Of a stretch of DNA of 64,000 bases, positions 11,951-21,469 are shown piece by piece. Within the stretch, counting starts at the first letter, position 1. Every line of letters starts with the position of its first letter. Below the pieces are notes generated by a model. The model was not told where the DNA came from. It was given only the letters and a program-made list of their open reading frames with translations, and did not search any database. Origin of the DNA: Plicaturopsis crispa FD-325 SS-3 (lineage: Eukaryota > Basidiomycota > Agaricomycetes > Amylocorticiales > Amylocorticiaceae); the NCBI GenBank assembly GCA_000827205.1, contig KN832571.1, forward strand, positions 300,884 through 364,883, given 5' to 3'. The position numbers and the translations under genes were made by a program.

Positions 11951-11959
11951 GGTAAACGC
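11951..11959 (+). repeat. Target site duplication, left copy (GGTAAACGC)
   Basis: The same nine bases follow the right end of the element at 19992-20000. The pair abuts perfect terminal inverted repeats, so it marks insertion of the element at 11960-19991. Confidence 0.9.
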
Positions 11960-11997
11960 CAGGCTCCTAACCACCCGGCCTTGGGAGTTGTGAAATA
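11960..11997 (+). repeat. Left terminal inverted repeat, outer 38 bp
   Basis: A perfect inverted copy of 19954-19991. The repeat is interrupted at 11997 by the nested TA-flanked element and resumes at 12722. Confidence 0.92.
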
Positions 11998-12719
11998 CAC
12001 CCCCAGACCGGAACGCATTGAAAAACCTTTGGAGGATGAGATCAGCGGATTTCCAACGGAGTTTTCCAATGACTTTCCTACGGTCAGCAAGATCAGCGGA
12101 AACCAATGGACCCTCCACGCGAAAATCAAAGGCCCATCAAGCCGACATGCCGAGACATATAAATGGCTAACAAGCCCCTGAAAGGGACTTAGAATTTCGT
12201 TCGGAGAGTTGTGGCAGCGCTCAGTCTGCAGTGACAGTGTTGCGCAGCCCGCGCTCACAGCTCTATAATCAGAGGTCTGCACTCAGTGAATCGAGACTAT
12301 ACTCTGCTCGTGACATTCAAGGCCTTAGGCAGACTAATGGTCGCCCCGTTCAATGTTGTTTTCAGCTTATAAGCATAGTTTGATGATCTGGAAGCAGCAC
12401 TGGATGAACAAACAGCATGCACGGGCAAACCTGTCATGGCCTTGTTGGCTCAACGGTTACAAGTGCTTGTTGCTGGCGCTCTGAGATTTTTTGTAGGCCC
12501 GCGTTCGAACCTTTTGCAGAGCAGTTTTTTTTTGCAGCGGTACACGCTCTGTTCCATTTGATGGGCCGGTCTCTCGGGCTGATGGACTCGTTGGAATCCC
12601 AATGGAAGTGTCTACGGTCACCGTAAATCTTGCTCACCGTCGGAATCCAATGGCAAGCCCACTCAAATTCCATCAATCTGTTTTTCATTGGATTTTCAAT
12701 GCGTTCCGGTCTAGGGGTG
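11998..12719. mobile_element. Nested miniature inverted-repeat element with TA target duplication
   Basis: The insert begins CACCCCCAGACCGGAACGCA and its other end is the inverted copy with one mismatch over about 27 bp. It sits between TA dinucleotides, and the opposite end of the host transposon shows the uninterrupted site (GTGAAATAAATGC, with TA single). This shows a 722-bp insertion with TA duplication, the signature of Tc1/mariner-type miniature elements. It has no coding capacity. It contains a degenerate tRNA-like stretch at 12438-12522. Confidence 0.85.
12438..12522 (+). other. Degenerate tRNA-like (pol III promoter-like) segment
   Basis: A-box-like TGGCTCAACGG and B-box-like GCGTTCGAACC stand at tRNA-like spacing and are followed by a T run. 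The D and T stems pair poorly, so this is not a functional tRNA gene. It could be a tRNA-derived SINE fragment inside the miniature element, or chance. Confidence 0.3.
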
Positions 12720-12721
12720 TA

Positions 12722-12847
12722 AATGCTAAGTCGACATTCACTCTGACAGCCACTTTCGGCGCTATCCGAAAATCACATGACTTAATTCAAACTCAGCAAC
12801 TCTAATCCATTCACAACTCCCAAGGCCTTTAGGTTCGGAGCAAGCCC
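12722..12847 (+). repeat. Left terminal inverted repeat, inner part
   Basis: An inverted copy of 19827-19953, identical for about 107 bp and then differing by one indel and one substitution. It ends in an 18-bp palindrome, GGAGCAAGCCCTTGCTCC (12837-12854), a possible transposase-binding site. Confidence 0.88.
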
Positions 12848-13447
12848 TTGCTCCGGCGCCGTACCGGCGAGCCTTCGCAGAAGGGGCTTGCTCCAAAGTG
12901 GGCCACAGAGCAAGGACATTAAGATATATTTCCTGCCACCATCTTCGCACTTTTCTCTTAGCTCTGGCATACAGACTTGTAGATTATATGCATATTAAGC
13001 CCACTGTAACTCGCATTCACACAAATACAACGAGAATATTATACTGTAGACACCCTTCGAGGCAAGCATGTCGGCCTGGTGAATGCCATGTTCAGTGGCA
13101 TCACTTGGCCGCTTTCTCCCATTTCTTGAGTGGGATCCATTACAACCTATTTATGAAGCATTCTGGATGTGTTTTTGCAGAGCGAAGAGCAGCGGATACC
13201 TTATGAGCAATAAAATAAGGCGGAGGAGGCAAGTCACGCACGGTGTGACGGGATGTGATCTCGCGCGTTTGAGTGTCACTCTGTATGTGGCGCGAACGCG
13301 ACGTCTATAGTTCTGCGCATTGTGCGCGAATTTCTCCATGTAGTAGCAGTCTTAGATGTTGGTGCTTTACTGAAAAGACACACCCTTCCATAGTAACAGT
13401 GAAATAGGTGTAGCGACAACAAGTCCGCGTACAAAAACCGATCGGCG

Positions 13448-16400
13448 ATGCCGCACATTGACCCCTCTGCGACAAAAGTGATCGGGCGCGACTCCTGTCG
13501 TTTCAAGGAGTCGTCAGTTTTTTTTAAAGCAAGTCCGAGTAGAAAGGCGTACCTCCTCCCTTCAGTCCCCTGTACAGACCGCTGCCACCATCCCATGAAC
13601 ATGGGCCCGCCTCCGACACTCTCGTTCGAGAATGCTTACTGGGAGCAGCACCTACCGGGCATGAAAAATGCCAGCCTCCAAACGAGGCTGCACCTCGTAC
13701 TATCATTAGCAATTTACCTGGCAGTCTCCGTGCAACAGCTCCTTGAGTTCATTTTTTCCACGGACATCAAACCGGTCAAGGACCGGGCCTCGCGCTTCTT
13801 GGGCTATACACGATCAGCTCAGACCGAGGAACAACGCTTCTCACCACGGATGGTCTTCCAGCTCTGGCACACACGATGGCCAAAAGCGCAGAAGCATCTC
13901 CATGACATGATTATACCATGTGCATGCGAGATTGCTGTGGAGGAAAGCGACAAAATCATCAATGACCCCACCCTCCAGATACGAGTCAAGAATCTTACCG
14001 TGTCAGCCATCCGCGACCTCCTGCAGCCGAAGACGATTGTCGAAAAGTACAAGACAGCGGCACCGTTCATTTACGATGTTCTGTATGCGTTTTCAGCTTC
14101 GCCGAACCGCTACCGAAAGGAAAAACAACAGAGTGAGGAGCGGAAAAAAAGAGAGGGGGCCAGCGGCGGCATGGGTGCAGACGTCTCACCAAGCGATGAA
14201 GAGGACTGGGATGATGACCCCAATGCTGCCCATGACGAGGATGGAAAGGCGCAGGAGAAGGCACAACCGTGGGCGGAGGGACTAGAGGGGTTCACACGTA
14301 ATCCTGTATTTGTGAGTGAAACCGTGGGTCACGAACAAGAAAGACGACTCACCTACGAGCTGAGCAGGCAATAGTCATGGCTATCACGATGCTCGCATTT
14401 GTCCGCAATCGTTCAACAAATGCTTTGCCCCTCCTACTCGGACTCTTCTTCAAGATATCGGGGACCAGCACGCGTGTCTTGTCCATGCTGAGTAACATCG
14501 GAGTTTGCGTGTCCAGCAACACAGTCGAGCGCCTCAAAAAGCGCATCTCCGAGGACGCGATAGCATTTGCGGTCGATCTAATCAAGAGCGGACAGCTGTT
14601 CTGCGTGGTTTTCGACAACATCAATATCTTCCAGCGAAAATTTCAACAGCGGACAACTAACCGTAACTCGATGATAAATGCAACAAACTGTGCTATAATC
14701 GGCATTGATGGTGCAGACACTGCCGCAGAAGACCTGGACGCAAAGCTCAGTATGCGCGGAAATCGTGCACAGGCCACACCCCGGGATATCTTTGCAACGC
14801 AAGAGGATGATGCCCACATGAAACTGGCATTTGAGGCATTGATTGCCGATATGTTGGTGCGATACTGTCCAGGAAGCACAAAATGGGAGGATCGTACCAA
14901 GATGCTCGAGGAGATATTGGCGGCGGTGCCTACGGACAGACCGCTGAAGGCCGAGAAGACTGATACACGACCGTTCGGGGTCTTCGACGTGAACGAAGGG
15001 TCTAAAAAGGGGTTAATCAAAGTTCTCGAGGCCATACGAGAACGTTCCACACTCACCGTTCAGGAGTGGTCTGCCAAAGCCCGAATCATAATCGGCGACT
15101 GGCTCACAGCAAATAACCTCCGCGCGGCACGACGGGACCGCACCGACGATGTCAACGCAATGGAGCGGGTCGATTATCCTGAGGAGCTCAGTGCGCTTTG
15201 GCATTACGCGCTCCAAGCGACGCATATGATAATGCGCACCCATTATGGACACGCCGTTCTCGACCCTTCCTCGCTCGCTGCACACAAAGGCCTTCTCCAT
15301 CGAGTGTGGGACGTGAACAAGCCAAACTATGCTGCGGCCAAGGCACTGATACGACACTCGTTAATTGCTCGTCTACTACATATTGTTATGTGAGCTAACA
15401 CACCGTTTATTGATTTGCTGAAGCTCTAGACACTGACCATCGTATGATTATCGCAGGGTAATGCAAAACATGACACTCTGGTCAGAGTTGAATGCATGGC
15501 GGCCAACTTTAGAGGATATAAAGGCAATATCTAAGGAAATCGGCGATCAGTTTACAACAACAACGGCTGCCGAAAACGCAAAAGACGGCGGCGACGATTA
15601 CCTGGCTCATGAGATATATTTCATCCGCGACGCACTGTTCTTCTGCGAATTCGAGCACGCAATCAGCTATGCCGACGCTGGGCGTGTCCTACGTGTGCTC
15701 AAATACTGGGCATTTGCTTTCAGAGGCGCGGGGCAGCACAATTACGCTCGCGAGTGTCTTGAAGTCCTGCTCAAATGGAAATATGAGCTTACGACTGCCC
15801 TTCGTACTGCGCTCGAGAAGTCCTGGTTCGTGAACCGATGGGGAATTGACGGCCGATGGATACCCGCAGATCTGTACTTAGAACAACTGAACTTTTGGGT
15901 TAAAGTGCGTACGGCTCTTCCAAATAAAGTCGTTGTCGTACTCACTATGTGCTGTCAGCGTGTTTTCATCGCACAGGGAAATGGTGTAACTGTTGAGTAT
16001 ATCATCGAGAAAGGTTCTGCTTGCGTAGAGGCGTTCCGTGATATCACACACCTTGTTGCAAATTTCTTCGGCGACGCCGACCGGGCACGGAGATCCAAGG
16101 AGCTTGCGTTTGCAGAGGATATGCGTGTCCTAGTGGAGGAGATGGTGAGAAAGAATGCACATGTCTTGTCGACAACGGGAAACTTCGTACCGGCACCATC
16201 AAAGAAGAAGTCGAACGCCAAAGATATGAACGACCCGGAGCCTCCGCGCTCTGCTATTGTCGACGTGATGGTCATCGGAGCAGAAGTCTGGAACCAAGGG
16301 AAGTTCACAGAATACATAGAAAAAACAACGTACGATCCAGCCGTGGGATATCCGATCTACAGTGCTGCCGAGGAACGACCACTACCACACGACACTAGGC

Positions 16401-16558
16401 TGAACAACAACACAGTCTTTGATAATATTGCATCAGACCCTATGGATCATAGTGGGTACGAAGATCTTCATGGTGACGAGAATGAAACTACCGGGGGGTC
16501 CACGGCTGGTGCACTGGGTGGTGGGGATGAGTTTGCAAATGGGGAGGTATCGTGGTAG
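13448..16558 (+). CDS. DUF6589-type protein, candidate transposase
   Basis: The spliced product is 995 residues from three exons (13448-14311, 14368-15389, 15457-16558); the sum is an exact multiple of three and no stop interrupts it. I recognise the family as the basidiomycete DUF6589 domain. Seen: an N-terminal region with an acidic low-complexity linker (about 220-275), then VVFDNIN (Asp near residue 369), IIGDWLTANNLRAARR (Asp near 529) and KYWAFAFRGAGQHNYARECL (Glu near 725), with an acidic and Gly-rich C-terminus. In RNase H-fold transposases the catalytic D-D-E lie in comparable strand and helix settings, so these three acids are candidates; this is inference. The gene lies inside perfect terminal repeats beside a helicase gene and ends convergent to it, overlapping by 71 bp. 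Confidence 0.85.
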
Positions 16559-19315
16559 TATATCCGGTATGTGTAGTATGTGATGGCCCGGGCGCGTAGA
16601 ATGCACCGAATTGATATGGACTGGCCGGTAGAAATGCCGGCGTAGGCAGGTAATCATTTGGATAAGGGGTGTGAAAGGACGAAGGACCGGGAAGATCTTG
16701 GGCTTGAAACGAGTTCGGAGTCCCCCAGCCATGCGAATAATCTTGTGGCAAAGCTGAGGGCGGCACAGAATGGGCGTATGGTAGTGGCGTGGAATAGATC
16801 ACACGAGGATCGGGAAAGTGTGATCTGTGGACTTGAGAGGTAGAGAAAGGTGAAGAATTGATGGCTGCATCAAAGCGACCTAAGTCACGAAATGTAGGTC
16901 GTGGTTGAGGGTAGAGTGTTCGGCCTGCAGATGAACCAGGCGAAGGTGTAGCAGGCAGCGCGGCACTCCGGGTCCCCACTATGTGTAACGAGGTTAGTCC
17001 TCGCTGCATTGGCTAGTAGCGATGGATAAAAACGCACCTTGACGAAACTCGGAGAGACTGCGCGCTGGACTCTCACCAAAAATCGGTTGCGGGATACGTG
17101 CTCGAGGTGTTGCATCATCGTCGCGCACCTTCTTGCGTGCACGACGCTGCGACGTTGGTGTGGAGAATGTCCTTGCGTACGCGCACCACTCCGAGATCAC
17201 AGATGCAACGCTGGAGAGGTCATCATCCGTAGCAAGATCCCACTTCACGCGCTTGCGGATAGCTTTGGGGTTGATAGTTGCCTCGTTCAAGAAGTCGGAG
17301 CCTTTGGAAACAAGGGAGTCGAGCACCTTGGGAGGAAGTAGTGTGTTGCGAGACATGAACGCACTTCCTCCAGACCTTGCATGGAAGGCGTCTCGCCACG
17401 CGAGGAGGGACGTGCGCAGTCGGTCTGTGACATCGCTTGGCAGGGCATGAGTTCCGGTGAGAGGCTCGACATTCGTCGTGATGGGGGTGTCGCCGCGGGA
17501 GAGATTAGATATGCTAGATGAGGGAGAAGACGGTCGTGTCGGAGGGAGGGCCAACGGATGAATAAAATCGGCAGCAAAAATGTGAAGGCGAGAGTCGTCT
17601 TTCTCAGCTGCCCGAGTATCGTGAAGCTGAGCAGGGTTGCAGTGGTTGCAGCACCTGTCAGAGGGCGGGGATCGGGATAGATCAAGGACCGTCCAGTGCA
17701 GATCAAAAGATGACTGCAGTGATCGGTTTCCGGTGTGAGTAGGCCCGCCGAGAGGGAATAGCTCAGTGAATGTATTCAACCTCGTTGTCGGATGGAAGAG
17801 AGTCGACAGGTATTGATGTGCACAACCTGGTTGAAAGTCGTTAGCTTGGAGATCGCTAGCATGGGTAAAGCGTGAAAGATAAATACCAATGGGGTGATCC
17901 GAACCAAGGTTAATGAACTCTTCGAGGCGAGAGTCGAGATTAGCACGCTTCTTAGTACTAGTCACCGGCTCGAGCTTCAGTTTCCGGCGCCCCTTGACTT
18001 GCTGTACCGCAAGACCGACAGGCGGAGGCTTCGGACGGAAGGCCCACCCAGGAACGAGCAGGATGCATGTGGCTTTAGTCAACCGATCGCGCCCAGCGCG
18101 CCCCCAACGTTGCGCGACGGTAGCGAGTGATTTCGGACAGCCAAAGATGACGGAATACCGTACATCGGGGACATTGCACCCCATACCGGCGGCATCTGTT
18201 GCGCACAGAATGCGGATGTGCCCATTCGAAAACCCCTCCCAGCTCCTCGTCTTCGCCTCCTCCGATAGGTTAGATGAGAACGGCTGTACACAGTCTCGCA
18301 GATGGGCGGGTAGGCACTTCCGAAGGGTGCGAACGGCAAGCCGACACTCGGCCTCGGAGTTGAAGTAAAATAGGCATTTATCGATGGCCTCACGTTGAGT
18401 GTCGGCGTTGAGGATTTTTGGGAGGAGATTGAGGGCGTCGAGGACAGGATTCTTTGTGTTTTTAAGTTCACGGGTGAGAAAAAGAAGATTAGGTCGGTCG
18501 GACCCGACATCGATTCCCCAGAAGGGCCTGTGACCGAAGCCGAGGGAGTCCCAGATTACTTCGAAGGTAGATGTGGCTGCGGTCGCTGTGCATGCGACGA
18601 ATGGTACCTCCTGGCCTGTAAAATTGCGAAGGCTGTCGAGTTTCCGATAGTCGGGGCGGAATTCGTCGCCACCCCACTCGTCGACGCAGTGGGCCTCGTC
18701 TGTGACCATGGCCGTGAGACGTCCGCGGAACTTTGGGTCTTTCCATAGCTTCGTGAAGCTGTCCGACCGCGCCATCTCGGGGGATATGTACGCGAGCTGC
18801 GCGTCCGTGCGCAGATCCTTCCACAAGCCGGCGGCGCCTGTGGTGTCCTCGTTGATCGCAAGAGCCTTGATTCCCTTTGCAGTCGCTTGGAGCACCTTCC
18901 CAAACGTCTCGGTGAGCATCATGCATGACTGTATTGTGTCACAAGAACGTACCTGATCATATTCGAGTGCTTTCAGAGGACTAATGACGACTACCAGCTT
19001 TTTGCTCCCCCCGAGGACGGCTAAGCCTTGGAAGATGAGACTTTTTCCATAGCCTGTGCCAGCGCAGAAGATGCTATCGTAACCCTGCAGGATTCGCATG
19101 ACAAGCGCGACCTGCCAGCTATCCGGGATATAGTCAAGCTGGAGCTTGGACACGAGCTGGGCGCTAGTTTTTTCGTGTGTCGACAAGTGTCTAGGAAGGG
19201 GTTTTATTCCTCGAAGTCGTTGTGAAGCAGGCGCCTTACGACGTCGAGGAGTACCTGGAGAGCGCTGTGTTTGGCCAGAGCGCGAGCGAGGCGGTGTTGC
19301 TGGCCGTGACTGCAT
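16488..19315 (-). CDS. RecQ-like superfamily 2 DNA helicase carried by the transposon
   Basis: The first exon runs from the ATG at 19315 to 17038; a 59-nt intron (16979-17037) joins a Pro/Ser/Tyr-rich C-terminal exon ending at 16488. The product is about 907-922 residues. A 45-nt in-frame segment at 18908-18952 with GTACGT/AG ends is probably a further intron, because it interrupts the conserved SPLKALEYDQ region. Seen: Q-motif region YIPDSWQ, Walker A AGTGYGKS, DEAHCVDEWGGDEFRPDY (motif II), ACTATA (motif III), SDRPNLLF, DAAGMGCNVPDV and QRWGRAGRD (motif VI), then a RecQ zinc-binding-like CCNHCNP. The family unwinds DNA 3'-5' with ATP. No RQC or HRDC domain is apparent. Its place inside transposon ends argues for a role in mobility or in repair of its excision sites. 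Confidence 0.88.
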
Positions 19316-19760
19316 TGTAATGGTGAGAGGTAAAGAGGATCTTGTACAACGTGAGGCGCGTCTTCACGCGACCGAAAGACTTGACGCGTCAAATTCGTGC
19401 TTGATTCACTGCATTCACCTTTCAGCAATTTTGCTGAGCGCAATACTGCAGATCTCCCTTTGACATTAGAGACGTACATGACCAGATTTCGAATGCGCGA
19501 ACGACTGTGAGCTCGAATTTTTTCTCTCTCCCCTTCCGCTCTACCTTAAGGCCGATAGGCAACACGTCGTTTTGAGTTGAATGACGCGTCACTTCGACAG
19601 TCAGTATCACTAGATATACATCCGGCAAAAATGAACAAAAAATGAGAAGCTATAGTTCGAGATACATACATGAATCTGTGCACCATGGCTGAAGTAATTC
19701 GAGCTCGCATTGAAGCTGTACGATAATCGTAACGTCCTGGCATATTTCCCCATCTTGGTA

Positions 19761-19833
19761 CAAGCCCCTTCTCCAAAGGTGTTGCGGAGCGTGAAATATT
19801 TATTTGAACTACCTCATACGGAGAAGGGGCTTG
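19761..19833. repeat. Subterminal inverted repeat near right end of transposon
   Basis: CAAGCCCCTTCTCC at 19761-19774 is the inverted copy of 19820-19833, a 73-bp hairpin. Related CAAGCCC and GGGGCTTG motifs occur at the left end (12842-12893). Such repeated subterminal motifs are often transposase-binding sites; that role is inferred. Confidence 0.6.
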
Positions 19834-19991
19834 ATCCGAACCTACAAGGCCTTGGGAGTTGTGAATGGATTAGAGTTGCTGAGTTTGAATTAAGTCATGT
19901 GATTTTCGGATAGCGCCGAAAGTGGCTGTCAGAGTGAATGTCGACTTAGCATTTATTTCACAACTCCCAAGGCCGGGTGGTTAGGAGCCTG
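19827..19991 (-). repeat. Right terminal inverted repeat (about 165 bp)
   Basis: An uninterrupted version of the terminal repeat. It carries the empty site of the miniature element that interrupts the left repeat, and it is followed directly by the right target duplication. Confidence 0.9.
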
Positions 19992-20000
19992 GGTAAACGC
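19992..20000 (+). repeat. Target site duplication, right copy (GGTAAACGC)
   Basis: Identical to 11951-11959. Confidence 0.9.
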
Positions 20001-20442: not shown

Positions 20443-21302
20443 CTAACCAAAATACTTCTGCCTCGATAAGCCGGTCAATAGTTCGACGGCAGCCTTGGCA
20501 CCGTCGACAACAGCAATCTGTTGTGCGCCGCCAGCGCGAGCGCCATCGCGCACGATCGCTTCCATTCCTGACATCCCTGAGACGACGAGAAATGAGAATT
20601 CTCAACACAGAGAAGTACAGAAAATCACGTTAAATTACCTGCACATCCCAAGATAATGACGTCGGCACCCTTCTGCGCAAGAGCTTTTGCGGCTTCTTTC
20701 ACCCTTGCCACCGTCTCAGGCTCTTGGTCGTGCAGCTCCAGAACGCCTAAGCCGGTCGGCTCAACACCGAGGAACCGGTCTGAGCCTCCAGCCCCTAGGA
20801 ATGCGCGCACGGCATCCGTCAAGCGGTTCCGCCAGCCCACGCCGGTGGTGATGATGCCAAAGCGCGACCCAACCAACAGTGCATGCGATATTGCGGCCTC
20901 AAAAATGCCCATGATCGGGCGATCAAACCCGCCTTCTTTGAGCATGCGCGTAAGGGGGTGATCAGAGAAGCAGGCGACTAGGTATGCGTCGTACATGGGT
21001 CCTACCCAGTCGACGTGTGCTCGGATGTCTGCATAGCATACAGCAGCGGACATGACTGCAGTCGTTTCGTCGTCGATGGAGGCAGGGGCACGAGCAGAGC
21101 CTGTGAAATAGACCAGCGCGACGTTGCGTGAACATAACGGCAGTAGGCTTTCCCTCAGGCCACTGGTTATAGATCTCGAGGAGTTGGGATTAATAACGAG
21201 GATTTTTACTCGGTTGACTTCGATTGCACAGCACCAATCTTGCTCCATAATGTCCGATCCAGCGACGGGACAGACTTGGGGGGTGGGCGAGTCTGAAGAC
21301 AT
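20443..21302 (-). CDS. Asp/Glu/hydantoin racemase family protein (Dcg1-like)
   Basis: The family racemises hydantoins or amino acids through two catalytic cysteines without a cofactor; yeast Dcg1 is a member under nitrogen control. Seen: VKILVINPNSSRSIT at the N-terminus, the first catalytic Cys in YLVACFSDHPL, FGIITTGVGWRNRL in the middle, and the second Cys in VIILGCAGMSGM, which is formed across an intron (about 20579-20639). The final exon ends GAKAAVELLTGLSRQKYFG before the TAG at 20443-20445. The start is uncertain: the ATG at 21302 is used, but 21248 would give a shorter leader closer to bacterial homologues. The substrate cannot be told from sequence. Confidence 0.86.
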
Positions 21303-21469
21303 AGTGGTGGAGGCAGAAGGCAAGAACTTTTCAGTGTCTGGAACCTGGTCGCGTCTGAAGAATACGAGCGCGTAGCCCCTTTCCTTCTTACCACCACTGT
21401 TCCGCGCTTTCCTCGACAACTGCTCGGTTTGCGCATTGCATCTTGAATACGGTCTCTACGATAAACGAC

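What the first reader, a model, noticed from the sequence alone, without database searches (positions are those of the whole stretch)
11951..20000. A complete large DNA transposon that pairs a DUF6589 protein with a RecQ-like helicase
The sequence shows perfect 38-bp inverted ends, extending to about 165 bp once a nested element is removed, flanked by a perfect 9-bp direct repeat GGTAAACGC. The only two genes inside are a DUF6589-type protein and a RecQ-like helicase, convergent and overlapping. I know of no described fungal superfamily defined by this pair. The clean ends and intact genes suggest that DUF6589 genes, known to me only as an orphan family in mushrooms, mark a transposon group with its own helicase.
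Basis: partly seen in the sequence, partly recalled or inferred. Interest (0 to 1): 0.93.

Follow-up and report, generated by a model that had tools for sequence, protein, structure and literature searches.

The report
Helicase-carrying DNA transposon in a mushroom
This is a complete jumping gene of a fungus that carries its own likely cutting enzyme (a protein family so far labelled "function unknown") and a DNA-unwinding helper; it most likely belongs to a described but little-known group, AcademH, and it gives that orphan protein family a likely job.

Summary
At 11960-19991 lies an element with 38-bp perfect inverted ends (146 bp once a 722-bp insertion is set aside) and the 9-bp duplication GGTAAACGC. 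It carries two convergent genes, DUF6589 and a RecQ-like helicase, overlapping by 71 bp in my gene models. It is a real transposon: of 22 elements recognised by their ends in the same 33-Mb genome, 19 have a perfect 9-bp duplication; 7 of the 19 carry DUF6589, 6 of these with a RecQ-like hit inside the ends. Of 26 DUF6589 loci, 16 have a RecQ-like hit within 6 kb (0.25 expected), 14 convergent; in other mushrooms the two genes are often neighbours. A confident model of a close DUF6589 relative has an RNase H core with a conserved D, D, E, and its best structural matches are DDE transposases (Hermes, P element, Tn5, ISCth4). So DUF6589 is very probably the transposase. Homology to Academ transposases could not be tested. 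Eight of 13 DUF6589-RecQ loci examined showed no complete ends. New member of a known kind.

The parts
11951..11959 (.). left target-site duplication GGTAAACGC
11960..11997 (+). outer left terminal inverted repeat, 38 bp, begins CAGGCTCCTA
11998..12719 (.). nested 722-bp element with its own inverted ends, flanked by TA on both sides
12722..12829 (+). rest of the left terminal inverted repeat (perfect to 146 bp in all, imperfect to about 173 bp)
13595..16558 (+). DUF6589 gene, 946 aa, exons 13595-14311, 14368-15389, 15457-16558; proposed DDE transposase with D322 (14614-14616), D483 (15097-15099), E679 (15752-15754)
   Evidence: exon borders and catalytic triad inferred
16488..19315 (-). RecQ-like helicase gene, 922 aa, exons 19315-17038 and 16978-16488; GTGYGKS (19060-19040), DEAH (18700-18689), QRWGRAGRD (18112-18086)
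   Evidence: motif roles recalled
19846..19991 (-). right terminal inverted repeat (146 bp perfect)
19992..20000 (.). right target-site duplication GGTAAACGC

Best explanation
An autonomous DDE-type DNA transposon, most likely of the AcademH lineage of the Academ superfamily. DUF6589 is the transposase: an RNase H-fold enzyme with a helical insertion that binds the CAGGCTCC or TAGTCT ends, cuts or nicks there, and joins the element to target DNA with a 9-bp stagger, which host repair turns into the 9-bp duplication. The RecQ-like 3'-5' helicase is a dedicated accessory, probably opening transposon ends or flanks, or helping the repair or replication step that finishes insertion. Shown: the ends, the 9-bp duplications at many sites, the gene pairing, the predicted fold and the conserved D, D, E. 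Inferred: catalysis, cut-and-paste rather than a replicative route, the helicase's polarity and exact step, and the AcademH filing.
Confidence: 0.83

Rival explanations
1. A separate, undescribed superfamily: a DDE transposase of its own (DUF6589) that recruited a RecQ helicase independently of AcademH and happens to share the 9-bp stagger.
For: The name DUF6589 is in 0 papers of the held library; no reference sequence was available to link it to Academ; the termini of AcademH are not known to me from any call.
Against: Helicase, 9-bp duplication and basidiomycete host all coincide with AcademH as cited in PMC10045372 and PMC10799480.
Confidence: 0.13
2. A Kolobok (KolobokH) or MuDR-like (MULE) transposon with a RecQ helicase.
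For: KolobokH encodes a RecQ helicase and is known only from fungi, and a rhodophyte Kolobok carries a RecQ helicase on the complementary strand, as here (PMC9587614); IS256/MuDR-type duplications of 4-10 bp include 9 (PMC10045372).
Against: Kolobok makes TTAA 4-bp duplications, has RR..YY ends and the C/DxxH signature; here the duplications are 9-bp mixed sequences, the ends start CA or TA, and no column pair of 61 aligned sequences shows C/DxxH in 15 or more of them. No Pfam MULE match at E up to 1.
Confidence: 0.03
3. The two genes are ordinary host genes, or a co-opted pair caught between unrelated repeats.
For: A single locus read alone could be a capture.
Against: Seven DUF6589-bearing loci with ends and 9-bp duplications, six of them with a RecQ-like hit inside, and neighbouring pairs in other Agaricomycetes.
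Confidence: 0.01

Closest known systems
AcademH transposons (Kojima 2020, Mob DNA 11:15; paper not held, known through citing papers)
   Same: DDD/E transposase plus helicase (DEAD, Helicase_C), 9-bp duplication (9 or 10 reported), Basidiomycota
   Different: No tested feature differs; transposase homology and terminal sequence could not be compared
AcademX
   Same: Other lineage of the Academ superfamily
   Different: Reported with a nuclease and 3- or 4-bp duplications
KolobokH
   Same: Fungal, RecQ helicase
hAT (Hermes) and P element transposases
   Different: 8-11% identity in most of those rows, no C/DxxH signature, accessory helicase

Membership tests
AcademH | 9- or 10-bp target-site duplication | tested here: met
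   9 bp, perfect, in 19 of 22 elements recognised by their ends
AcademH | encodes a helicase (DEAD, Helicase_C) | tested here: met
   16 of 26 DUF6589 loci have a RecQ-like hit within 6 kb
AcademH | encodes a DDD/E transposase | tested here: met
   by predicted fold and conserved D, D, E of a 71%-identical relative, not by activity
AcademH | transposase homologous to Academ transposases | not testable with these tools
   no Academ reference sequence held; Kojima 2020 not held
AcademH | host range includes Basidiomycota | tested here: met
   the listed named relatives of DUF6589 (120 of 180, 120 of 321) are mushroom-forming fungi (class recalled, not looked up); range as cited in PMC10799480
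AcademX | 3- or 4-bp target-site duplication | tested here: not met
   9 bp
KolobokH | TTAA 4-bp target-site duplication | tested here: not met
   19 different nine-mers; rule from PMC9587614
KolobokH | C/DxxH between second D and last E | tested here: not met
   no column pair with it in 15 or more of 61 aligned DUF6589 sequences
KolobokH | RecQ helicase | tested here: met
   but on a separate convergent gene
MuDR / MULE | MULE transposase domain | tested here: inconclusive
   no Pfam MULE match at E up to 1; a very diverged member could be missed
MuDR / MULE | C/DxxH between second D and last E | tested here: not met
   rule
hAT | C/DxxH between second D and last E | tested here: not met
   rule

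The most novel reading that the evidence does not exclude
DUF6589-RecQ elements are a separate eukaryotic transposon superfamily, with its own DDE transposase, YAGKCT ends and strict 9-bp duplications, whose helicase was gained independently of AcademH.
Probability: 0.13. Interest if true: 0.7.

Novelty: new member of a known kind. Interest (0 to 1): 0.42.

Why it matters
It turns an orphan Pfam family that recurs in mushroom genomes (DUF6589) into a likely transposase with named candidate catalytic residues, so that "hypothetical proteins" and lone RecQ-like genes in Agaricomycetes can be checked as transposon genes. It also supplies complete elements and short non-autonomous ones with defined ends, which makes the open question of what a RecQ-type helicase does in a DDE transposition directly testable.

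Tried and rejected
Chance or host-gene reading rejected. KolobokH rejected on duplication, ends and signature; a MULE reading is disfavoured. A telomere-linked RecQ helicase reading was considered; a listing and passages of PMC4522978 show such genes in other fungi, but ends and duplications explain this locus; the relation between the two was not tested. An empty paralogous site was sought with joined flanks and not found. A scan of viral contigs confirmed no relative. Rfam: no match in the window at gathering thresholds. A profile search meant to reach distant DUF6589 relatives listed only DUF6589 proteins of mushroom-forming fungi (120 of 321 shown, 8000 candidates scored). A PDB sequence search with the DUF6589 profile gave 3 matches at E 0.71-1.6, none meaningful. 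Target-site preference: 9 of 19 nine-mers begin with G, not convincing. Structural families that are not among the listed rows are not excluded. Papers: only passages were seen of PMC10799480, PMC10045372, PMC9587614, PMC8290104, PMC12210899, PMC10294476, PMC9970103, PMC9674265, PMC12730594, PMC4522978; the last six added nothing on AcademH itself beyond references to it or its absence, except that PMC10294476 describes Academ in bivalves.

Full report
OBSERVATION. The element at 11960-19991 (8032 bp) is flanked by GGTAAACGC on both sides. Its ends are perfect inverted repeats of 38 bp, then interrupted on the left by a 722-bp element at 11998-12719 that has its own inverted ends and TA on both sides. 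Setting that aside, the repeat is 146 bp perfect and about 173 bp in all. Inside lie DUF6589 (+) and a RecQ-like helicase (-), convergent, overlapping by 71 bp in models with canonical splice sites; the exon borders are my reading, no transcript was seen.

OTHER COPIES IN THE GENOME. The window is part of a 33.2-Mb, 49-contig genome. The 110-bp inner part of the end, and then a fuller end, match further places. A blind self-comparison of 31 held stretches for inverted repeats found a second, strongly diverged pair at C5:873045-879189 with a 240-bp end repeat at 86%, the same start CAGGCTCCTA and the perfect 9-bp duplication GGTATTGCA. With longer flanks a third pair, C5:37259-43760, showed a perfect 101-bp repeat starting TAGTCTCGG and the duplication AGATCATAC, found without assuming any end sequence. 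Two more pairs, C5:1217502-1223980 (GGAAGTCAA) and C13:544915-551284 (TCCCGAAGA), end in TAGTCT on both sides, with little further terminal likeness in the first and a 55-bp offset of the repeat in the second. Over the 13 DUF6589-RecQ loci, 17 combinations of a left and a right hexamer exist, and 5 of them have an identical nine-mer outside; about 6e-5 would be expected. The hexamers were taken from the first elements, so C5:1217502 and C13 are the confirmations by that count. In the other 8 of the 13 loci no such combination was found; flanks there were often short, partly masked, or the copies decayed. Two further pairs, C5:1382010 and C28:64675, were not tested for both ends because one side was not held.

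Searching with the TAGTCTCGG end gave two more DUF6589 elements, C12:956923-973662 with a helicase hit (AAGGCTTAG) and C5:561588-569865 without one (CACAGCAAT), and short non-autonomous elements. In all I examined 22 elements recognised by their ends: 19 have a perfect 9-bp duplication (7 with DUF6589, 6 of these with a RecQ-like hit inside; 12 without DUF6589), and 3 fail because one end is altered or was not found: C23:152522, C7:992856 and C19:50848. One of the 19, C5:525630, has two right ends followed by the same nine-mer. C19:340615 is a fragment without an end. Not examined: C2:2715710-2716288 and C2:2054474. The 19 nine-mers are all different. The two groups of ends share YAGKCT.

GENE PAIRING. 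PF20231 gives 56 hits in the genome, which I grouped by hand into 26 loci over the cut-off; the hit at C7:1702324, below it, was dropped and the split C12 gene merged. Sixteen of the 26 have a RecQ-like hit within 6 kb, 14 convergent and 2 divergent (C14, C15); 0.25 are expected by uniform placement. One of the 16 (C28) rests on a weak hit (E 8e-4). This tally was read from the tables by eye; the other 38 may pair with DUF6589 proteins outside the listed ones or may not pair.

MECHANISM. A DDE transposase binding the ends and joining them at a 9-bp stagger explains the duplications, the mobility of short elements that keep little but ends, and the constancy of nine. The 160-bp element C15:651659-651818 is little more than one end whose inner inverted copy has become the other terminus, so end sequences seem to suffice in cis. 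The helicase's part is unknown; opening ends, clearing the flank, or supporting repair synthesis all fit. Cut-and-paste against replicative movement is not decided.

COMPARISON WITH WHAT IS KNOWN. The paper describing AcademH (Kojima 2020) is not held. Citing papers say that AcademH makes 9- or 10-bp duplications and AcademX 3 or 4, with helicase and nuclease respectively (PMC10045372, passages), and that AcademH, a source of DEAD and Helicase_C domains, occurs in Basidiomycota, Ascomycota and Mucoromycota (PMC10799480, passages). Putative non-autonomous Academ elements were noticed in the mushroom Marasmius oreades (PMC8290104, passages). All AcademH features that I could test are met; homology of the transposase was not testable. 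KolobokH (RecQ, fungi) is contradicted by duplication, ends and signature, although a Kolobok with RecQ on the complementary strand is known from a rhodophyte. The name DUF6589 occurs in no paper of the held library, so linking it to this group may be new as an annotation; that library lacks most subscription papers, and the AcademH paper itself.

LIMITS.

Noticed in passing
window 11998-12719: Nested 722-bp element with 32-nt inverted ends (CACCCCCAGACCGG...) and TA on both sides; a similar end, also at TA, stands inside another element at C7:993780 (L091).
   Followed up: partly
C5:37259-43760 and C12:956923-973662: Two DUF6589-RecQ elements whose four 101-bp ends are 100% identical while compared interior stretches are only 84% and 87% identical: ends seem homogenised between diverged elements, or under very strong constraint.
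   Followed up: partly
L007 (C15:651659-651818): A 160-bp element made of little more than one end, with a perfect 9-bp duplication GACATTAGT; in the full element the inner part of each end is an imperfect inverted copy of the terminus.
   Followed up: partly
contig C5 of G000: 8 of the 26 DUF6589 loci lie on C5, which is 1.96 of 33.2 Mb.
   Followed up: no
C14:634375-639346 and C15:209504-213966: Two DUF6589-RecQ pairs are divergent, not convergent; no pair of ends was found within the flank held.
   Followed up: no
C1:3205979-3206555 and C12:521196-521525: Helicase fragments 62-69% identical to the window's helicase with no DUF6589 hit nearby, next to masked stretches.
   Followed up: no
C12:959547-969704: About 10 kb seems to be inserted inside the DUF6589 gene of one element, judged from the two parts of the profile match.
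   Followed up: no
window 20625-21455 (-): Open frame that looks by eye like an Asp/Glu/hydantoin racemase, about 0.6 kb beyond the element's right end; no family search was run on it.
   Followed up: no
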